Source of the DNA: Bacteroidales bacterium
Lineage (GTDB): Bacteria; Bacteroidota; Bacteroidia; Bacteroidales; BM520
Length of the DNA: 64,000 bases
Assembly (NCBI GenBank): GCA_016285515.1
Contig: JAEEQW010000004.1
Span: forward strand, 1-64,000
Direction of reading: 5' to 3'
A program made the translations under genes and the position numbers. Below the pieces are notes generated by a model that did no database searches, had not been told where the DNA came from, and saw only the letters and a program-made list of their open reading frames with translations. This document shows positions 415-10,056 of this stretch, one piece after another (position 1 is the stretch's first letter; the number at the start of each line of letters is the position of its first letter).

Positions 415-705
415 TTAAATAACCAATTCCGAAGTGACATCATACGAAGTCACCTTCCCTACCATTTCAATACGATTATTCCAATTGTTACCCATAAAAT
501 AGTAACGGACACTATCCTTCTCAGCATCAATAATGGCAGAAAGCCGATTTTTCAAAACAACAAATTGAGCTTCTGTCAAAACACACTCAAAGACAGAATT
601 CTGAACTCTTTGCCCATAATTTTGGCATTCCTTAGCCACTTTTCTTAACCTTCGGGCACCCGATGATGTTGTAGTCTCAACATCGTATGTAACCAAAACC
701 ATCAT
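415..705 (-). CDS. cas2: Cas2 adaptation endoribonuclease-fold protein
   Basis: 96 residues, normal for Cas2. The N-terminal strand MVLVTYDVET followed by GARRLRKVAKECQNYGQRVQNSVFEC is the ferredoxin-like Cas2 fold with the usual acidic residue after the first strand. Cas2 dimers bridge two Cas1 dimers in the spacer integration complex. The gene starts 3 bases after the cas1 stop and is the last cas gene before the leader and array, the usual I-C order. The doubled ATG at the start leaves a one-codon uncertainty. Confidence 0.97.
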   Translation of the reverse strand: MMVLVTYDVETTTSSGARRLRKVAKECQNYGQRVQNSVFECVLTEAQFVVLKNRLSAIIDAEKDSVRYYFMGNNWNNRIEMVGKVTSYDVTSELVI

Positions 706-708
706 ATC

Positions 709-1731
709 TCAGTGAATTATAAAAACAGGATAATCATCGATATCCCCTCTAATTGCCCGAGCGAGCAACAATGCCTGCACATAGGGCAAAAGGCCTATTT
801 GTATCTTCTCTTCCAAAAAAGGATGTACTATAGTTTCCGATTTCCTCTTCTGCCACGCAGAAAGAACTGTCTTACGACCGCCCTCCGTCAGCAACACCAT
901 GTCCTCTCCTGATTCGACAAAATCCATTGCGGTCAGCTGTTTTCGGTTAATGAGCGACAACACTAACCTATCCCCCAAATAAGCTCTCAGCTCTTCCATC
1001 AAATCCAACGCAAGAGACGAGCGTCCTGGCCTCAGTTTATGCAAAAAACCAACATAAGGGTCCAACCCAACCGTCTCCAAAGCTGAGGCTGTTTCGTTTG
1101 CCAGCAATGTATAAACAAAAGAAAGTAATGCGTTTACTTTATCTTTAGGTGGATGACGGTTTCTTCCATGAAAAGCGAAATCCTCCTGCTGATGAAGAAT
1201 CATCCTATGGAAAACTCCAAAATAAGAATTGGCAGCATCACCTTCCACCCCAATGAGTTGCGATGAATCTTCGGTATGCATAGCAACACGTTTGCTCGAT
1301 TCCAGCATCTTCACGACGGCATCCAATTCACCATCATCGCCATTGTCTCGAATATGACGTTGAAGAATAGTTCTATAATTCTGAATCTTCCCCGCAATAA
1401 ACAATCGGGCATAATGCATAGAACGTTCATCGTCTTCAGAAATTTGGTATTGTGTTTTTCGCAACAATACATTCCCTCGAACTGGACCTTGAAGTCGACC
1501 CACGAAATGACCACTAGGCGAAAGGAAAGAGAGAGATACTCCGTTATCAGCACAAAGTCTCATCAGTCCTGGGCTTGCCCCCATGTAGCCGAAGGTTACA
1601 ATACCTTCAATATTCATGACGGGAATACGAAATAACTCTTCCTTGTTCACGGACACCACCACATTCAACCCGTCCTTTGAAAGATAAGCATCTGGTGTGG
1701 TTACATAAAGTGTATTAAGCAATTTCCTCAT
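709..1731 (-). CDS. cas1: Cas1 spacer integrase, type I-C
   Basis: 340 residues, full length. The N-terminal beta domain (about 1-90) is followed by the helical catalytic domain. The metal-binding residues are recognisable as the Glu in GVEGDAANSYF, the His in GFLHKLRPGR and the acidic pair in LDLMEELR. Cas1 with Cas2 inserts new spacers at the leader end of the array. The start overlaps the end of cas4 by 17 bases and the stop is 3 bases from cas2, so cas4-cas1-cas2 form a tightly coupled adaptation module. No missing catalytic residue was seen. Confidence 0.98.
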   Translation of the reverse strand: MRKLLNTLYVTTPDAYLSKDGLNVVVSVNKEELFRIPVMNIEGIVTFGYMGASPGLMRLCADNGVSLSFLSPSGHFVGRLQGPVRGNVLLRKTQYQISEDDERSMHYARLFIAGKIQNYRTILQRHIRDNGDDGELDAVVKMLESSKRVAMHTEDSSQLIGVEGDAANSYFGVFHRMILHQQEDFAFHGRNRHPPKDKVNALLSFVYTLLANETASALETVGLDPYVGFLHKLRPGRSSLALDLMEELRAYLGDRLVLSLINRKQLTAMDFVESGEDMVLLTEGGRKTVLSAWQKRKSETIVHPFLEEKIQIGLLPYVQALLLARAIRGDIDDYPVFIIH

Positions 1732-2393: not shown

Positions 2394-3437
2394 TTATTCC
2401 TTTATATCTGTGCCTTCTTCTTCAAGCGGCAATGCACCAAAAAATTTATCGAAATCACTTTGGAACAGACGGTCTTGCACGATTCGGTACTTTTCAAACT
2501 CCGTTTCCGCATGAAGCACAGCATCTTCGTGACTCACACTCCCGGCATTGTCAAGCAGAGGTCGCTCATCGCTGGTCAAATAGGCATCAATACGCTTGGC
2601 CCAGTCCTCCATTGTCATCGGGATGTGCTTCTTGGCACGGTTTTCGGCAAATTCCAGCACTGCGGTAACAATATGTCCCATATCCTCCAGTTCCATCTGT
2701 TTCAGGTAGTTTTTGGCAATTGAGACATCGGTCTTAACAATTTTCCCGTCAGGAGCATTCTCCCATGTGGTCAATCCCATGTGTTCCTTGTCGGCATCGG
2801 CCCGTTCCATTATCAGTTCCGCCGCTGTTCTGCCATGTACTGCATAGTGCATCTTGTTCTGCACCATTTTGAAGAATAGCCTGGTCGTGGGCGCATCGCG
2901 ATTGTAGTCTATTGCTGTGGCATAGATGTCTGTCAGTTTCTGGTAGAAACGCCGTTCCGAGAGACGAATCTCGCGTATCTCAGCCAGCAAGTGCTCAAAA
3001 TAATCCTCTCCCAAGAATGTACCGTTCTCCATGCGTTTCTTGTCAAGCACATAGCCACGTATGGCAAACTGGCGCAGTACACTCGTCGCCCATTGCCGGA
3101 ATTGTGTGGCGCGGATGCTGTTTACACGGTAGCCTACAGCGATAATGGCATCAAGTTTATACATCACCACCGTGCGTTTTACCTCACGGTTTCCTTCCTG
3201 CTGAACTGTTTCCATTTTGGAAATAGTTGCCTCTTCCTTCAGCTCACCCGTCTCGAACACATTGGCAAGATGCTTGCTGATGGCAGGCACTCCCACATCG
3301 AAGAGTGCCGCCATCGCTTTTTGTGTACACCAAATGGTTTCATCAGCATACATTACCTCGATGCCCTGTTCCTTATTCTCAATCTGGAAAATCAGGAACT
3401 CCGCCGTGCTATTTCTTATCAAACGTTTTTCTGCCAT
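2394..3437 (-). CDS. RhuM-family protein embedded in the cas operon
   Basis: 347 residues, complete. The N-terminal part (about 15-135: TQKAMAALFDV, AISKHLANVFETGEL, YKLDAIIAVGYRVNSIRA, ATSVLRQFAIRGY) and a long helical C-terminal part (DVSIAKNYLKQMELEDM, MTMEDWAKRIDAYL) match the layout of the virulence RhuM family, named after a Salmonella pathogenicity-island gene and without an established biochemical role. The N-terminal half looks like a DNA-binding module of the kind seen in phage antirepressor-like proteins; that is inference. Gaps are 6 bases to cas7 and 4 to cas4, so it is almost surely co-transcribed with them. It is not a standard I-C gene. Hand counts of GC are higher here (33 of 60 at 2581-2640, 31 of 60 at 2881-2940) than in two sampled stretches of the neighbours (20 of 60 at 5881-5940, 22 of 60 at 8401-8460), which suggests a separate origin. 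Confidence 0.9.
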   Translation of the reverse strand: MAEKRLIRNSTAEFLIFQIENKEQGIEVMYADETIWCTQKAMAALFDVGVPAISKHLANVFETGELKEEATISKMETVQQEGNREVKRTVVMYKLDAIIAVGYRVNSIRATQFRQWATSVLRQFAIRGYVLDKKRMENGTFLGEDYFEHLLAEIREIRLSERRFYQKLTDIYATAIDYNRDAPTTRLFFKMVQNKMHYAVHGRTAAELIMERADADKEHMGLTTWENAPDGKIVKTDVSIAKNYLKQMELEDMGHIVTAVLEFAENRAKKHIPMTMEDWAKRIDAYLTSDERPLLDNAGSVSHEDAVLHAETEFEKYRIVQDRLFQSDFDKFFGALPLEEEGTDIKE

Positions 3438-3443
3438 TGTTGG

Positions 3444-4286
3444 TTAAATCATCTCTTCAACGGACACACCATCTGGAAGATTGTTTTTGTCAATAGTAAT
3501 TTTGTAATCTTCAAAAGAGCGAGGAAAAACCACATTGTCTTTTTTCTCAATCTTCACGAGGTCAAATAATTGTGAGGAACGGGCATTGCCTAATTTCGAT
3601 TCGTGTTTAAACACGATTAGCGCACGGGCATTCATCTCGCCACGAGCTGCGGCATGGTCATGCTCAAAAGCGTTCATAAGAGCTTCCCACAAAAGATTCA
3701 AATCCTCTTCTGTAAAATGACACTTCTCTCCGTCAAATGCAGAGACATAGCCGTGCATACGATAGAGTCCATAGCTGACGGTTGATTTGTTGCCGAATGT
3801 GTTCACTTTGTCAGCATCCTTTTCATCAGTAATACAGCATCTCGTCAAGGAATGTGTTCGACTATCTATAGCATCAATGCTGCGAGAGAATACAAATTGT
3901 ACTGGTCCTCGCACAACTCCCAAGTCATTGCCAGTACTTAACACGGCTCCAAATGTGCGAATATCGAAGTAGCGGTCGCACAAAGCCATCCTTCCCTTTT
4001 TTTCATCATTTTCCGATTCTTCTTTTCCTTTGTTAATGATGTTGTTTAGTATGTTCCCTTGTCGAATGAAGATGTCGTATTTACTAGAATCGAGTTCGCC
4101 AGCCTCGACCTTTAAGTGAACATAATTACGCACCTTACGTTTGATACACACATCTGACACAAGACCTTCTCTCGTCTCAAAATCAATTCTCGGTTGATTA
4201 TCCATTTCTGGATCACCATTGGGATTTCCGTCCTTCACATCATAAAGGAACACGAAATCATACCTGTTTTTAATGTATTGCTCCAT
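3444..4286 (-). CDS. cas7c: Cas7 (Csd2) Cascade backbone subunit, type I-C
   Basis: 280 residues, usual for Csd2. The N-terminus FVFLYDVKDGNPNGDPEMD is the signature of this RAMP subfamily, followed by DVCIKRKVRNYV and a C-terminal region with LIVFKHESKLGNARSSQLFDLV. Several copies of Cas7 coat the crRNA and form the Cascade backbone. It follows cas8c with a 15-base gap. The gene after it is not cas4, as usual, but the RhuM-family gene. Confidence 0.97.
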   Translation of the reverse strand: MEQYIKNRYDFVFLYDVKDGNPNGDPEMDNQPRIDFETREGLVSDVCIKRKVRNYVHLKVEAGELDSSKYDIFIRQGNILNNIINKGKEESENDEKKGRMALCDRYFDIRTFGAVLSTGNDLGVVRGPVQFVFSRSIDAIDSRTHSLTRCCITDEKDADKVNTFGNKSTVSYGLYRMHGYVSAFDGEKCHFTEEDLNLLWEALMNAFEHDHAAARGEMNARALIVFKHESKLGNARSSQLFDLVKIEKKDNVVFPRSFEDYKITIDKNNLPDGVSVEEMI

Positions 4287-4301: not shown

Positions 4302-4667
4302 TTAATTAGTACTTTCTGCGGTGTCTTTTTTGTGGTTTTTTTGGAAATAATAGCCCAAAGCAAACTCACCTTGCTCAATGGCTGAAAACCGTTGGGGGAA
4401 ACATCCATTTTCGCTAATTTTCCCTGCAATCTCATTAAGTTCATTTGCCAGATAACCACCTATCTTGCGTTGATAGATAGTTACATTCTTCGTCAATAAT
4501 TGGCCAAGGATGTAAGCAGGCTGCAAAACTGCTGCCGCAAAGTACCGCTCCTTGACCCCACTATTAACATTACCCATAGCCTTCCACTGCATTGATTCAA
4601 TGACAGCGAACAATCTGCCACACAAGTAGGCTACGCTTGTGTTGCTTTCATCCAATGTTGATTTCAT
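4302..4667 (-). CDS. cas11c: Predicted Cas11c small subunit from an internal start in cas8c
   Basis: Type I-C systems are known to make a small subunit from an internal start in cas8c. An in-frame ATG at 4667 gives a 121-residue product beginning MKSTLDESNTSVAYLCGRLF, directly before the helical block that corresponds to Cas11c (LFAVIESMQ, AAVLQPAYILGQL, YLANELNEIAGKI, FSAIEQGEFALGYYFQ). The size fits known Cas11c proteins. No Shine-Dalgarno site is visible, which is normal in Bacteroidetes. Product and start are inferred by family analogy. Confidence 0.55.
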   Translation of the reverse strand: MKSTLDESNTSVAYLCGRLFAVIESMQWKAMGNVNSGVKERYFAAAVLQPAYILGQLLTKNVTIYQRKIGGYLANELNEIAGKISENGCFPQRFSAIEQGEFALGYYFQKNHKKDTAESTN

Positions 4668-6452
4668 ATTCTTGTCTGTATTACGATTAATAATCAATTT
4701 TATGAGCGCAGCTCGCTCTGTTGAAAAGTAGTCTCCTTTCCATATTCGGATTAGAACACTTTGCAAGACTTCAAGTGGAAGCTTATTAGAGCTTCCTTTT
4801 ATAATTGCATTCCATAACAAGGCGCCCATTCTAGCCTTGGAATTGAGATCGGCTTTAGACTTGTCTCCGAGTTTTTTATCACGCTGAGTTGCATTTATTA
4901 ACATCCTCAAAGGACTATACACTAGTTCTCCATTATTGTTTTCTATTTCAATATCTCTAAACCACTCAGCTAGGTTCTTTTTGTATTCATCCAAACTGAT
5001 GGCAGTCCAATCACGAACAGCGATGCGGGCGGCAGCCGATGACAAGGTACAACTATAAAACATATTGGTGTCAACCGTGGAACCGAGATTCTTTTTACCG
5101 CTCCAAACAGACTCAAAAAGATTCTTCACCCACAAGGCCTCTGGTGAGTCAGCAACGATCAAAGGGTTGATGTCTTCAACATCTTGTCTTGTCCAAAACA
5201 CAGCTACTGTTGTATCACTAATATTAATCCTATGATTGTATTCATAATGCGCTTTTTGCTTTTCATTTCCAATAATCTCACGCCCATCAGACAGAAGAAA
5301 ATTCAATCCCTCGATATAATTCCTAGCACAATCTCGGCAAATCGATGAATTCAAATTACCTTTCAATCCGTAGGATTCAAAAGCATTTTCATTGAATGAA
5401 ACTAAAGCACAGCCTGCTGTTTGTCCCTTCGGCATTTTTACTAATCCGTGCGGTTCATCTAATACGGGACTATCTGATTTACCACAAACTGAACATATTC
5501 TTCCATTGGAAAGCTTTTGCTCATTGTCTTGGTAATGCCTGATAATGGAGGTTCTGACTTCATCTGTTTTCAATAGAACAGTATCTCCCATTACCATGAA
5601 TGTTATATTATCACTAAATGAATCCTTTGTAAATCGGAAAACAGATTCTGAGATTGCTTTTTTTAAGCCATTCTCATTGCTTTCTTCGTAGAATTTGAAC
5701 ACGGGCTCTATGTTGGGTAATCCCTCCCTATATTGTTGCAGCTTATTCAAGAACCACTGATGCTTTTTGTCTACACCCACTTCTGTAATGCCAAGAACAT
5801 CTTCATCCCTGCCCAGTAACAAATATGTCTCTTTTTTCTTGGCAGAGATTGTTTCTGTTAGGACAGACTGATTGTCATTAACAATAAACCCTTGAAACTC
5901 TCCATTTTCATTAATAACAATTGCAAGGTTGAAGAAAGCGACTTTTAAAGACATACTTTCACCCTGCTTTGTCTTTTTTTGTTTCTGTTCTTGGAGATAT
6001 TTGTTGATGGTCCCCTGTACTTCTTCCGTTGCCAACAGCATAGTAGAACCAATCATAAAGGTGATATTTCCACCCTTATTCCCATCGCTTAAGTTCAAGT
6101 ATTCGACAACGGCTTTTCTTAGTCCATTTAAATTTTGTTTTTCATAGAATTTAAAAATAGGCTTAAAAGATTTTACATCCTTATACGGCTCAAGTCGCTT
6201 TTTGAATGCTTCAAGTTTACCGACATCAACACTAACACCAAGAACCTCCTCGCTCTTATCAAGCAGAAAACGAGCTTTCCCCTTTTTAGCCGTTATGACT
6301 TCCGTCTCAACAGGCTGTCTTTCACCAACAATAAATTTTTGATACTGACCTTCTTTATCAATAACCAAAGTAATAGAGTAGTTTTCTTCTTTGAGGGCTC
6401 TATTTTTACCTTTTGTCACTCGCTTTCCAAATTCCACCAATTCCTGTATCAT
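4302..6452 (-). CDS. cas8c: Cas8c (Csd1) large subunit with duplicated N-terminal domain
   Basis: 716 residues, longer than the roughly 550-620 expected for Cas8c. The extra length is explained by two tandem diverged copies of the N-terminal domain, residues about 25-157 and 174-308. Each copy shows in order a strand pair (QKFIV / QGFIV), TEVITAKK / TETISAKK, a VLG turn, a PIFKFYE / PVFKFYE block with NGLRKA / NGLKKA, and NITFM ending in LLATEEV / LLKTDEV. Then come a four-cysteine site (CSVCG near 320, CRDC near 372) and the usual C-terminal half, including the Cas11c-like helical end. Cas8c recognises the PAM and recruits Cas3; the N-terminal region contributes to PAM contacts. The stop overlaps nothing; the start overlaps cas5c by 4 bases (ATGA). 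No frameshift was seen, so the protein looks functional. Confidence 0.95.
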   Translation of the reverse strand: MIQELVEFGKRVTKGKNRALKEENYSITLVIDKEGQYQKFIVGERQPVETEVITAKKGKARFLLDKSEEVLGVSVDVGKLEAFKKRLEPYKDVKSFKPIFKFYEKQNLNGLRKAVVEYLNLSDGNKGGNITFMIGSTMLLATEEVQGTINKYLQEQKQKKTKQGESMSLKVAFFNLAIVINENGEFQGFIVNDNQSVLTETISAKKKETYLLLGRDEDVLGITEVGVDKKHQWFLNKLQQYREGLPNIEPVFKFYEESNENGLKKAISESVFRFTKDSFSDNITFMVMGDTVLLKTDEVRTSIIRHYQDNEQKLSNGRICSVCGKSDSPVLDEPHGLVKMPKGQTAGCALVSFNENAFESYGLKGNLNSSICRDCARNYIEGLNFLLSDGREIIGNEKQKAHYEYNHRINISDTTVAVFWTRQDVEDINPLIVADSPEALWVKNLFESVWSGKKNLGSTVDTNMFYSCTLSSAAARIAVRDWTAISLDEYKKNLAEWFRDIEIENNNGELVYSPLRMLINATQRDKKLGDKSKADLNSKARMGALLWNAIIKGSSNKLPLEVLQSVLIRIWKGDYFSTERAALIKLIINRNTDKNMKSTLDESNTSVAYLCGRLFAVIESMQWKAMGNVNSGVKERYFAAAVLQPAYILGQLLTKNVTIYQRKIGGYLANELNEIAGKISENGCFPQRFSAIEQGEFALGYYFQKNHKKDTAESTN
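5529..6380 (-). repeat. Tandem duplication coding the Cas8c N-terminal domain
   Basis: The first copy is coded by about 6380-5982 and the second by about 5933-5529, joined by a 16-residue lysine/glutamine-rich linker. Similarity is clear at protein level (shared VLG, FKFYE, NGL-KA and NITFM blocks at the same spacing) but not at DNA level, so the duplication is old and both copies have been kept in frame. Confidence 0.85.
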
Positions 6453-7186
6453 AACTCTGCCTCCTCTTCTTTATATTGTTCGTAAACGACACGGTTATAA
6501 TCATCTGAAACCTTTGGTTGGATGTGTGTTGATGACAGCATTTTGATGGCATTGTCCTCTGGACATTCAAGCACTCCGTTTACAATAGCAACATCATAAA
6601 AAAACACAGGAGTAGCCTTACCTTTGTCATCATAAAACATATCATAAAACATACTTCCTATAGGATAAGTGACATCCAATGGCACATCATGCTCAGTAGG
6701 CAAAGAGAAGTCAGCAGCAAATTCTCTTGTCCCAAAACAAGGCTGATGCCAGCATTGCCCTTTCTTTACCCTACGCTCAAACATTGTGCGGTATTTCTTA
6801 ACTGTTATTGGATGTTCGCTGTTTTTGGTTTTTTCAATAAGAGTCTCATTTACATTAACCGATGCCTCTATGATATAGCCCACATCCTTCAATACAATGC
6901 TATTCCGCTGAACTCGATTCTCTGTAATATCTATCGGTTCACCCTTTGGATTCTGCTTCTTGGAAATTTCGTTCCTCTTTATTGAAGTGAATTTTATTGG
7001 ATTCAAAATGATAATTTTCCTAATAAACCACTGGAATTCTGGCTTCCAAAGGATGGATTCCAGAATGCCTCGCGCTGCTGACGGGGTCATACATGGATAG
7101 CTCATGCGCTCCACCTTCAAGTCGGGGCGCGTAAAACAGGCAAAATCGCCCGTTACTTTCAGTCTAACAATCTCTTTGTCAAGCAT
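6449..7186 (-). CDS. cas5c: Cas5c (Cas5d) crRNA-processing subunit
   Basis: 245 residues. The N-terminus VRLKVTGDFACFTRPDLKVER and the following PSAARGILESILW are typical of Cas5d, and FERRVKKGQCWHQPCFGTREF is the conserved C-terminal block. In type I-C, which lacks Cas6, Cas5 itself cuts the CRISPR repeat and stays on the 5' handle in Cascade. No cas6 gene is present in the window, in agreement. The stop overlaps the cas8c start by 4 bases, and cas3 ends 12 bases upstream. Confidence 0.97.
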   Translation of the reverse strand: MLDKEIVRLKVTGDFACFTRPDLKVERMSYPCMTPSAARGILESILWKPEFQWFIRKIIILNPIKFTSIKRNEISKKQNPKGEPIDITENRVQRNSIVLKDVGYIIEASVNVNETLIEKTKNSEHPITVKKYRTMFERRVKKGQCWHQPCFGTREFAADFSLPTEHDVPLDVTYPIGSMFYDMFYDDKGKATPVFFYDVAIVNGVLECPEDNAIKMLSSTHIQPKVSDDYNRVVYEQYKEEEAEL

Positions 7187-7198
7187 ATCTGTCTTCTC

Positions 7199-9391
7199 CT
7201 ATATTACAAAGTTAAATTCGTCCTTAAATGGCAGCCCAAAGTCTCTATCGTATGAACCATACCAAATCAAAACACCGCTTGGCTCATGGCCGATAAGTGT
7301 ACTATTTTCCTTAAGGAACTTATCATAAACCTGAACACAATACTGCGAAATCTCTTGGCGTTCTCGTTTGGTTATATATTCTTCGTTTTTCAATTGATTG
7401 TATAATTCTTGGCTCTTTTGATTATAGGTATATACGAAGATGGACTGTGTATTGTTGTTAATTATCTTGTATTTATCCGCAATAGTCTGGAACAAGAATT
7501 TCTTTCTGTCCGCTGTAATATCCAGTTTATCTGTGTCAGCAAAGTTTTTAACAAGTTCTCTGTAATAGTAACTATAGAAATCGTGAGTATACAGTTTTCC
7601 TTCATTCCCTTTGTAAAGCATATTGGCAAACTCCAACCATGAACGATATTCTTTGCTTGGCTGGCCAGATTCTGTCAGTGCGAACAAATAGACATCACCT
7701 TTGATCAAACTCCCATTTTCATCCTTTAATTGTCCCTCTCGGTTGCATCGACCCGCCGACTGAATGATGGATTCCAAAGGTGCCAATTCCCTATATACCG
7801 TTGGAAAATCCATATCGACACCCGCTTCGATGAGTTGGGTGGAACTGACAATGATACGTTTCCCCTCCCTCAATGCCTGACGAATATTGGTTATAACCTC
7901 TTTTCTATGCGCAGGACACATATTAGTAGAAAGATGGAATAAATAATAATCGTCACATCCTTTCATCTCCTCAAAAAACAATCGGGCTTTCTTCTTGGTA
8001 TTAAAAACGACAAGAGCTGACTTGTTGCTTTCTGATACAATATCCGCTAATTCTGACACTGCTATTTCTTCATATTTATTCAGCGGATGGTAGGTTACTC
8101 GCCTTGTTTCTTCAAAAATGAGCTTGGGGTTTTCAACCAATGATTCTATCTTGCTTACTCCCTGAAACCCTTCTCTATCTTCAAAATCAGGTTGAGTAGC
8201 CGTACAGAACAACATGCTACATCTGCAAAGTTTTTGCAAATTATCCAGCATGGTCAGTGTCGGCTCAGTAACATTCAGAGGCAGCGTTTGTATCTCGTCA
8301 AAAATGATGATTGAATCTTGAATATTATGCAACTTTCTGCAAGCAGGCCTCTTATTGTCAAAAAGGGACTCAAAGAATTGTACGGAAGTTGTGATAATTA
8401 TGGGATAGTCCCAATTTTCCGTTGCCAATTGTTTGGAATTGTATTCATCTTTATCCTCATTTTCCGTATAAATCACATTAGAATGATGTTCAAGCACAAA
8501 ATCGTCCCCCTCATCTTTATTGAATATAGTCTTAAACACCTCTGCTGTCTGGTCAATGATGCTGATAAACGGCAAGACTATAATAATCCTCTTTATGTTC
8601 TTGTGATGTTGCGCGTGGTGCAATGCCCAATTCATACTGCAAAGGGTCTTTCCCAAGCCTGTAGGTAGGGTCAAAGAAAAGAATCCTTGTGGTAGAGAAG
8701 CTTTTGATTCCGCATATTTACGAACATTGTCTCGCAATTGAGCTATTATTGAAACGCCTTTTTCCTGATTATTTTGGAAAGATTCAAACTTCTTTCGCAG
8801 CTTGTTTAACAACACTTCTGTGTTTAGAGGGCAATTCTTTCTTGCTTCAAACTTGGTTTCATCAAAATGTCTTTCCGTATCAAGACTGTCAGCATCAACG
8901 AGAGAACTGTATAACATCCTGACAAATAGCTCTTGCTTTAGAATGTCCGTCAAGTCTTGAAACTCTTTATCATTCGGGATATTAAGTTTTTGTCCTATAT
9001 CCTCCTTCCATACTCTGCATATTTCACCATACGGACTATCATCCATATTTTGTTCTGCCATAATATCTTGTCGCATTTTTGGATTGTCTGGCAACCCGGC
9101 ATGATGTCCAAACACCGGAAAAACGACCTCCATCAATGATTGTTCTTTGGCGAAGATGGCTCCATAAATAGAATGTCTGACTTGATTGTTTTCCCCAGTA
9201 ATATGCTTTTGGAAAGCATCTGAATACTTACCAATATCATGAATGAGTCCACAAAACTCGTACAAATCTTCAAACGATTCTGACAAGGCAAATTTTCGGG
9301 TAAATGCACCTACGCCAGAACTATGTTCCTTCATCGTTTGCTTTTTGCCACTTGCGTTTTCAGAGTGAGCAATGTATTCTTTGTGTTCCAT
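7199..9391 (-). CDS. cas3: Cas3 helicase-nuclease with fused HD domain
   Basis: 730 residues. The N-terminal HD nuclease domain (about 1-200) shows EHSSGVGAF, LIHDIGKY, RHSIYGAIFA and FGHHAGLP. The helicase core follows: Walker A TLPTGLGKTLCSM, DEAD-box variant FDEIQTLP (usual in this subtype), FCTATQP, and motif VI with QSAGRCNREG after TQLIEAGVDMDFP. Cas3 is recruited by Cascade to unwind and degrade target DNA. All expected motifs are present, so the separate HD gene just upstream is not needed to supply a missing nuclease. It ends 12 bases before cas5c. Confidence 0.97.
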   Translation of the reverse strand: MEHKEYIAHSENASGKKQTMKEHSSGVGAFTRKFALSESFEDLYEFCGLIHDIGKYSDAFQKHITGENNQVRHSIYGAIFAKEQSLMEVVFPVFGHHAGLPDNPKMRQDIMAEQNMDDSPYGEICRVWKEDIGQKLNIPNDKEFQDLTDILKQELFVRMLYSSLVDADSLDTERHFDETKFEARKNCPLNTEVLLNKLRKKFESFQNNQEKGVSIIAQLRDNVRKYAESKASLPQGFFSLTLPTGLGKTLCSMNWALHHAQHHKNIKRIIIVLPFISIIDQTAEVFKTIFNKDEGDDFVLEHHSNVIYTENEDKDEYNSKQLATENWDYPIIITTSVQFFESLFDNKRPACRKLHNIQDSIIIFDEIQTLPLNVTEPTLTMLDNLQKLCRCSMLFCTATQPDFEDREGFQGVSKIESLVENPKLIFEETRRVTYHPLNKYEEIAVSELADIVSESNKSALVVFNTKKKARLFFEEMKGCDDYYLFHLSTNMCPAHRKEVITNIRQALREGKRIIVSSTQLIEAGVDMDFPTVYRELAPLESIIQSAGRCNREGQLKDENGSLIKGDVYLFALTESGQPSKEYRSWLEFANMLYKGNEGKLYTHDFYSYYYRELVKNFADTDKLDITADRKKFLFQTIADKYKIINNNTQSIFVYTYNQKSQELYNQLKNEEYITKRERQEISQYCVQVYDKFLKENSTLIGHEPSGVLIWYGSYDRDFGLPFKDEFNFVI

Positions 9392-9437: not shown

Positions 9438-10016
9438 CTACGCCTTTCCTTCAAATACGTTACAATAATCGAACAAATAGCCCCACTTGGTTCGTCCATG
9501 AACGCTACTGCCATACCCTTCGCATACTCTACCCATATTCTTGGCATACTCAAACAGCTTGCTTGAGCCTACAAACAGCCTACCATCTCCGAGGTAACAG
9601 CCTGCTAGACCTATGTTAGTCCGAGTCAATTGTGTCACCAACGGTGTCACAATCTCCAAATCCTCAACATAATCACAATAGTCATAGAGCCCACGATGGT
9701 GACCAGCAATAGGTTGTGCAATCAATGGAGCAATCTGAGGATACTGTTTTTGCACAATGACAGCTCCAACGTAAGAGTGATTCGGTCTGCTTTTTATATG
9801 CGAGTATTCCTTGCTATATCCTGTGACACCTTGAATATACTTTTGCCATTCTACTTGCTCTTTTCCCTTGTCATGCAAACGTCCCATAAGCTTTCCATAA
9901 TCACCCATACCAAACTCAGCAGCAAAACTTTCGGCCCTCTCTGCAACGCCTTGTTGGTGGTCTGCGTTAGATTGGACTGCCATGTCAGACTGTCGTATAT
10001 GTGATATGATTTCCAT
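9438..10016 (-). CDS. Stand-alone HD-domain protein, Cas3''-like
   Basis: 192 residues, first gene of the cas operon, 46 bases before cas3. The first two thirds match a Cas3 HD domain motif by motif: NADHQQGVAERA, RLHDKGKEQ, NHSYVGAVIV and AGHHRGLYD, equivalent to EHSSGVGAF, LIHDIGKY, RHSIYGAIF and FGHHAGL in the neighbouring Cas3. The metal-binding residues appear intact. The last 60 or so residues (from about VTPLVTQLTR) were not recognised. It is either a working second HD nuclease or the kept front part of a broken second cas3; no helicase remnant is visible in the 46-base gap. It is not part of the standard I-C set. Confidence 0.8.
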   Translation of the reverse strand: MEIISHIRQSDMAVQSNADHQQGVAERAESFAAEFGMGDYGKLMGRLHDKGKEQVEWQKYIQGVTGYSKEYSHIKSRPNHSYVGAVIVQKQYPQIAPLIAQPIAGHHRGLYDYCDYVEDLEIVTPLVTQLTRTNIGLAGCYLGDGRLFVGSSKLFEYAKNMGRVCEGYGSSVHGRTKWGYLFDYCNVFEGKA

Positions 10017-10048: not shown

Positions 10049-10056
10049 CAAATTTA
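10049..10056 (-). promoter_or_regulatory. Candidate promoter of the cas operon
   Basis: CAAATTTA on the plus strand reads TAAATTTG on the minus strand, matching the Bacteroidetes -7 box TAnnTTTG, 33 bases before the HD gene start. A CAAA at 10072-10075 (TTTG on the minus strand) could be the upstream box, though the 15-base spacing is short. No other promoter-like site was seen inside the tightly packed operon. Confidence 0.5.

What the first reader, a model, noticed from the sequence alone, without database searches (positions are those of the whole stretch)
9438..10016. A second, stand-alone HD nuclease domain ahead of a complete Cas3
The 192-residue protein repeats the metal-binding motifs of the HD domain of Cas3 next door, and the Cas3 HD domain is itself intact. 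Type I-C normally has one fused HD domain. The last 60 residues match nothing recognised, so it may be an added nuclease, an inhibitor or partner of Cas3, or the kept front of a duplicated cas3.
Basis: partly seen in the sequence, partly recalled or inferred. Interest (0 to 1): 0.62.

Follow-up and report, generated by a model that had tools for sequence, protein, structure and literature searches.

The report
Leftover front of a replaced cas3
The small protein is not an extra CRISPR nuclease but the broken-off front of the operon's previous cas3 gene, left behind when a different version of the cas3-cas5-cas8-cas7 block replaced the old one; it is a clear scar of a known kind of gene swapping in bacterial immune systems.

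Summary
An intact 192-codon frame (9438-10016, minus) lies 46 bp ahead of a full type I-C cas3, and its first 115-120 residues are a Cas3-type HD domain. The interpretation of an added nuclease or partner does not hold. Residues 3-125 are 50-72% identical to the front of complete I-C Cas3 proteins of other Bacteroidales ("lineage A"), but only 30% identical to the Cas3 next door. Trees place the stub in lineage A (100/99) and the window's Cas3, Cas5, Cas8 and Cas7 in a separate lineage B (100/99 or better). RhuM (80-90% identical), Cas4 and Cas1 downstream are again lineage A. An effector block B therefore replaced that of an A operon in place, and the front of cas3A was left upstream. The odd tail is junk from the joint: 35 bp come from a DUF1016_N gene that directly follows cas3A in a relative; the rest matches nothing and has no confident predicted fold. 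The stub keeps all six metal ligands known from I-C Cas3 but lacks the second half of the HD domain (SCLVDAD segment) and all helicase. In situ effector-module exchange is described in the literature, so this is a well-preserved new example. The stub shows no decay yet, so a residual role is not excluded.

The parts
9662..10016 (-). 5' part of a former cas3 (lineage A): residues 1-118 of the stub, with the first half of a Cas3 HD domain and all six metal-ligand positions (H6, H20, H48, D49, H106, H107)
   Evidence: 50-72% protein identity to the N-termini of complete Cas3 proteins; DNA homology to cas3A of four loci stops at window 9661; clade support 100/99; ligand positions invariant, matched to NlaCas3
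9627..9661 (-). 35-bp piece of a DUF1016_N (YhcG-type) gene, read in that gene's own frame (LEIVTPLVTQL), joined to cas3A with about 1 nt of overlap
   Evidence: 33 of 35 bases identical to L030 3363-3397, inside a DUF1016_N frame (PF17761, 6e-26) that directly follows cas3A there (E 1.7e-9)
9438..9626 (-). Tail of the stub frame beyond the DUF1016 piece, of unknown origin, with no confident predicted fold
   Evidence: No Pfam match, no match in plasmids or phages, only chance-level matches in 393 genomes of the order and in the related loci; pLDDT 26-41; single copy in its own genome
9392..9437 (-). 46-bp spacer between the stub's stop codon and the start of cas3
7199..9391 (-). Complete cas3 (lineage B), the working Cas3 of the operon
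   Evidence: in the tree with L046 and L047 only, 100/100; 47-48% identity to them against 33-36% to lineage A
6449..7186 (-). cas5c, lineage B
   Evidence: 60% identity to L046 and L047, 37-43% to lineage A; 100/100
4302..6452 (-). cas8c, lineage B, with a tandem repeat of its N-terminal ~150 residues
   Evidence: 37-40% identity to L046 and L047, 26-29% to lineage A; 100/100; internal repeat 39% identity, E 1e-31
3444..4286 (-). cas7c, lineage B; last gene of the replaced block
   Evidence: 58% identity to L046 and L047, 51-54% to full-length lineage A proteins; 100/99
2394..3437 (-). rhuM-family gene, lineage A; first gene kept from the old operon
   Evidence: 80-90% identity to lineage A, 50% to L046; PF13310
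1715..2389 (-). cas4, lineage A
   Evidence: 73-74% identity to L031 and L032 against 50-51% to L046 and L047; 100/98
709..1731 (-). cas1, lineage A
   Evidence: 64-66% identity to L031 and L032 against 58-59%; 99/99
415..705 (-). cas2, nearest to lineage A by identity; tree unresolved
   Evidence: 66-69% identity against 53-55%; no supported grouping
10049..10056 (-). TAAATTTG, a match to the TAnnTTTG -7 element of Bacteroidales promoters (consensus known to me, not tested), 40 nt before the stub's start codon; the only such match in the 825 bp before cas3 on this strand
   Evidence: background 41 per 64 kb, so weak

Best explanation
The 192-residue frame is the truncated front of the cas3 that once headed this operon. 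The ancestral operon was a lineage-A Bacteroidales type I-C operon (cas3A, probably followed by a DUF1016 gene as in L030, then cas5A-cas8A-cas7A-rhuM-cas4-cas1-cas2-array). The block cas3-cas5-cas8-cas7 was replaced in place by that of a distant I-C lineage B, while rhuM and the adaptation genes stayed. One breakpoint lies between cas7 and rhuM. The other lies in and behind cas3A and left its first ~118 codons joined to 35 bp of DUF1016 and ~190 bp of unidentified DNA, which by chance stay open for 192 codons. Today's Cas3 does all interference work. The stub lacks the second half of the HD domain, the helicase and the C-terminal domain, and is expected to be inactive. What may have kept its DNA in place is that it carries the former operon start (promoter and leader). 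Shown: homology, both lineages, both breakpoints, the DUF1016 joint. Inferred: order of events, inactivity, promoter role.
For: Stub residues 3-125 are 50-72% identical to the fronts of complete 723-769 aa Cas3 proteins at operon heads. Among 13 genomes of the order with a match, every other matching frame is 720-807 aa; only the window has a stub. The tree puts the stub in lineage A (100/99) and the window's Cas3 with L046 and L047 (100/99). Cas3, Cas5, Cas8 and Cas7 all group with B at 100/99-100/100, but rhuM (80-90% against 50%), cas4 (100/98) and cas1 (99/99) group with A. Lineage-A homology ends at 9661 and a DUF1016_N piece begins there, 33 of 35 bases identical to the gene following cas3A in L030. 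The tail has no homologue and no confident fold. In situ exchange of effector modules with a fixed adaptation module and array is described in PMC6452270.
Against: The stub shows no sign of decay in its 118 cas3A codons: no stop or frameshift, and one change at 47 columns invariant in six relatives, as few as working Cas3 proteins. That fits a recent event but also continued selection; synonymous sites are saturated, so it cannot be dated. No congener or family member held here has the locus (0 of 4 and 0 of 3), so the ancestral operon was not seen in a near relative. The origin of 9438-9626 is unknown.
Confidence: 0.91

Rival explanations
1. The stub is a maintained protein that modulates the resident Cas3 or Cascade, for example a decoy that binds Cas8c through its HD surface and slows recruitment of Cas3.
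For: Intact frame with all six metal-ligand positions and no excess of changes at conserved columns; it lies just ahead of cas3 and is probably co-transcribed with it.
Against: It belongs to a different Cas3 lineage from the resident Cascade, so a fitted interaction is unlikely. The pair was not found in any of the other 392 genomes sampled from the order, nor at the five genome contigs relatives. The second half of the HD domain is missing. The tail is a chance join without a confident fold.
Confidence: 0.05
2. A stand-alone Cas3''-type HD nuclease was added to the operon.
For: It passes the TIGR01596 cas3_HD cut-off, and its ligands match NlaCas3 H8, H25, H52, D53, H118, H119.
Against: The match covers only positions 3-110 of the 178-position model. 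The segment with S192 of NlaCas3 (S219 of TfuCas3, crucial for nuclease function; PMC11417383) and, by position, the Asp corresponding to T. thermophilus D205 (PMC5965380; correspondence inferred, not aligned here) is absent. The nearest kin are fused Cas3 proteins, not stand-alone Cas3''.
Confidence: 0.02
3. The stub is a truncated duplicate of the cas3 next door.
For: Same family and adjacent, in the same direction.
Against: Only 30% identity to the neighbouring HD domain against 72% to L030; separate clades.
Confidence: 0.01
4. The stub frame is an assembly or sequencing error in a working lineage-A cas3.
For: The window comes from a draft assembly in 54 contigs.
Against: No second lineage-A cas3 front exists in the genome: the only two matches to the HD query are the stub and the neighbouring cas3. 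The joint lies inside a contig and leads into DUF1016 sequence and then a complete cas3B operon.
Confidence: 0.01

Closest known systems
In situ exchange of effector modules in CRISPR-Cas loci (review 'Origins and evolution of CRISPR-Cas systems', PMC6452270)
   Same: The effector genes (cas3-5-8-7) are swapped while cas4-cas1-cas2 stay; the exchange is between variants of one subtype.
   Different: Here the outgoing module left a readable 118-codon scar with a mapped joint, so the exchange can be read from one genome.
Type I-C Cas3 (NlaCas3, 8zns; 8g9u), N-terminal HD domain
   Same: Residues 4-115 align at E 2e-11, with the same metal ligands; best structural matches are the same two entries.
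   Different: The stub lacks the second half of the HD domain, RecA1, RecA2 and the C-terminal domain.
Stand-alone Cas3'' HD nucleases (for example the type I-A HD domain of M. jannaschii)
   Same: HD motifs and the absence of a helicase in the same chain.
   Different: Cas3'' is a complete HD domain that works with a separate Cas3'; the stub is a half domain of fused-Cas3 descent.

Membership tests
Type I-C Cas3 (fused HD-helicase) | Homology to I-C Cas3 over the HD front | tested here: met
   50-72% identity to complete I-C Cas3 proteins; clade 100/99
Type I-C Cas3 (fused HD-helicase) | Complete HD domain plus DEAD/DEAH helicase and C-terminal domain | tested here: not met
   Homology ends at stub residue ~118; no helicase match
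Stand-alone Cas3'' nuclease | Six metal ligands of the HD site | tested here: met
   H6, H20, H48, D49, H106, H107 against NlaCas3 H8, H25, H52, D53, H118, H119
Stand-alone Cas3'' nuclease | Full-length HD domain including the C-terminal Ser/Asp segment | tested here: not met
   Match covers positions 3-110 of 178 in TIGR01596; the SCLVDADSLDTE segment is absent
Stand-alone Cas3'' nuclease | DNase activity | not testable with these tools
   needs protein
In situ effector-module exchange | Effector and adaptation genes of different phylogenetic origin in one operon | tested here: met
   cas3, cas5, cas8, cas7 in lineage B; cas4, cas1 and rhuM in lineage A; cas2 unresolved
In situ effector-module exchange | Remains of the replaced module at the breakpoint | tested here: met
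   cas3A front and DUF1016 piece at 9627-10016
In situ effector-module exchange | Ancestral operon at the same site in close relatives | tested here: inconclusive
   No match in 4 congeners and 3 family members held
Cas-derived anti-CRISPR (solitary viral cas gene) | Carried by a virus or other mobile element | tested here: not met
   No relative in viral contigs; the one 'phage' hit is a 563-residue Cas3 frame, cut by the record's end, in an unverified scaffold with bacterial-looking neighbours

The most novel reading that the evidence does not exclude
The half HD domain of the displaced Cas3 is kept as a small protein that still docks on Cascade or on DNA and tempers the resident Cas3, so that a scar became a regulator.
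Probability: 0.05. Interest if true: 0.6.

Novelty: new member of a known kind. Interest (0 to 1): 0.24.

Why it matters
Module exchange in CRISPR-Cas loci is largely inferred from conflicting trees. Here one genome shows both breakpoints and a remnant of the outgoing effector. The remnant shows that in this case cas3 was exchanged together with Cascade as one block, while rhuM, cas4 and cas1 stayed. It is also a caution: automatic annotation would call this a second Cas3 HD endonuclease.

Tried and rejected
Origin of the tail 9438-9626: Pfam, plasmids, phages, 393 genomes of the order, own genome, and all six frames against all related loci gave only chance-level matches. Stub on viruses or plasmids: no viral-contig relative; the plasmid hit H1 and 'phage' hit H8 are long Cas3 frames (755 residues, and 563 residues cut by the record's end), and the Treponema hit annotated Cas3'' is a 2.3-kb cas3 ahead of cas5c-cas8c. 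Dating by dN/dS failed because synonymous sites are saturated. sigma-70 scan: no more sites than in shuffles. More stub cases in the family of G373: none in 20 genomes. CRISPR repeat sequences differ among A, B and the window and do not decide which lineage the array belongs to. Two literature searches, for I-C Cas3 truncation in Bacteroidetes and for RhuM in I-C loci, returned nothing.

Full report
What is there. The window's first 10 kb hold a type I-C CRISPR-Cas locus of a genome of 2.58 Mb in 54 contigs; its relatives by cas genes are Bacteroidales. All cas genes are on the minus strand: cas3 (7199-9391), cas5c (6449-7186), cas8c (4302-6452), cas7c (3444-4286), a rhuM-family gene (2394-3437), cas4 (1715-2389), cas1 (709-1731), cas2 (415-705), and the end of an array at 13-245. 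Forty-six bases before cas3 ends an open frame of 192 codons, 9438-10016. Its first 115-120 residues are a Cas3-type HD domain: TIGR01596 50.2 bits against a cut-off of 43.45, PADLOC Cas3c 7e-22.

What it is. A scan of 84,980 species genomes with the stub returned five places. Four of them (L003-L006) lie in cas3 frames behind a WYL-type regulator gene; L003-L005 are complete at 724-769 residues and head I-C operons, and L006 runs off its contig. The fifth, L007, is itself a stub. A sample of 393 genomes of the order gave 12 further genomes with a match, all in frames of 720-807 residues, the closest being G373 (72%, L030) and G117 (69%, L031). The stub is 30% identical to the HD domain next door. 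It is therefore the front of a different, fused Cas3.

Two lineages in one operon. Each gene of the window was compared with lineage-A operons (L003, L004, L005, L030, L031, L032) and with the two closest operons of the window's own cas3 (lineage B, L046 and L047; found, fetched). Identities, A against B: HD stub 44-72 against 36 or none; cas3 33-36 against 47-48; cas5 37-43 against 60; cas8 26-29 against 37-40; cas7 51-54 (full-length) against 58; rhuM 80-90 against 50; cas4 73-74 against 50-51; cas1 64-66 against 58-59; cas2 66-69 against 53-55. Maximum-likelihood trees agree: the stub is inside A (100/99), while the window's Cas3 (100/100; its HD part 100/99), Cas5 (100/100), Cas8 (100/100) and Cas7 (100/99) are with B. 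Cas4 is with A (100/98) and Cas1 is with A (99/99). The cas2 tree is unresolved, and the rhuM tree has too few rows for starred support, but its identity is unambiguous. Effector block B thus sits between two pieces of an A operon: the cas3A front on one side and rhuM-cas4-cas1 on the other.

The joint. DNA homology to cas3A in four loci (L003, L004, L030, L031) ends at the same base, window 9661. From that base, 33 of 35 bases are identical to L030 3363-3397, inside a frame with a DUF1016_N domain (PF17761, 6e-26) that follows cas3A directly and precedes cas5A in L030. The piece is read in the DUF1016 frame (LEIVTPLVTQL) and the join shares about one base. In L031 the same gap holds a different gene, a Schlafen AlbA_2 / RecG-C-like protein, so accessory genes do occur between cas3A and cas5A. 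The remaining 189 bases of the frame match nothing. An AlphaFold2 model gives pLDDT 60-84 for most of residues 1-110 (41-49 in the loop at 61-80) and 26-41 for 111-192; its best structural matches are the two solved I-C Cas3 structures, 8zns and 8g9u.

How it works, most likely. It does nothing as a protein. The six ligands that hold the metals in I-C NlaCas3 (H8, H25, H52, D53, H118, H119; PMC11417383) are all kept (H6, H20, H48, D49, H106, H107). But the polypeptide leaves the Cas3 sequence just after the GHH motif and loses the second half of the domain, including the segment with S192 of NlaCas3 (equivalent to S219 of TfuCas3, reported as crucial). By position it should also lose the Asp reported as a ligand in the T. 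thermophilus domain (D205; PMC5965380); that correspondence is inferred. It also has no helicase and no C-terminal domain. The DNA may matter more than the protein: the only TAnnTTTG match in the 825 bp before cas3 on that strand is 40 nt before the stub's start codon, and L003 and L032 have one at -35 and -34 of their cas3. The background rate is about 0.5 per 825 bp, so this is only a hint that the old operon start still serves the new genes.

What speaks for restraint. The stub is not visibly decaying: no stop, no frameshift, one change in 47 columns that are invariant in six relatives. Either the exchange is recent or the frame is under selection; saturated synonymous sites prevent dating. 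No close relative with the locus is held.

Compared with what is known. PMC6452270 describes in situ exchange in which the adaptation module and array stay and the effector module is swapped, also between variants of one subtype. The window is a new and unusually legible example.

Noticed in passing
window 4302-6452 (cas8c): Cas8c carries a tandem repeat of its N-terminal ~150 residues (39% identity, E 1e-31); the protein is 716 aa against 562-605 aa in complete relatives of both lineages seen. In one search the Pfam Csd1 match starts only at residue 175.
   Followed up: partly
window 2394-3437; L003 11455-, L004 11466-, L031 11765-12796, L032 11045-12085, L046 11415-12449: A RhuM-family gene sits between cas7 and cas4 in I-C operons of both lineages (80-90% identity within lineage A). 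No paper was found that mentions RhuM together with type I-C. Its role in these operons is an open question.
   Followed up: partly
L007 5974-6342: A second, independent stub: a 122-codon frame with the cas3A front (50% identity) and no recognisable cas genes after it in the ~5 kb held, in an uncultured Prevotella.
   Followed up: partly
L030 3357-3677; L031 6871-8445: Accessory genes between cas3 and cas5 in lineage-A operons: a DUF1016 gene with a stop codon after VTQLS in L030, and a 524-aa AlbA_2 / RecG-C-like protein in L031.
   Followed up: partly
L053 4822-7044 and 9262-14570: In this relative cas3 points the opposite way to cas5-cas8-cas7-cas4-cas1-cas2 and lies on the cas2 side of them.
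   Followed up: no
MT838366.1 (L056): An unverified 'Bacteriophage sp.' scaffold that looks like a bacterial contig: kinase- and MurQ-like frames (by eye) beside a Cas3 frame cut by the record's end.
   Followed up: partly
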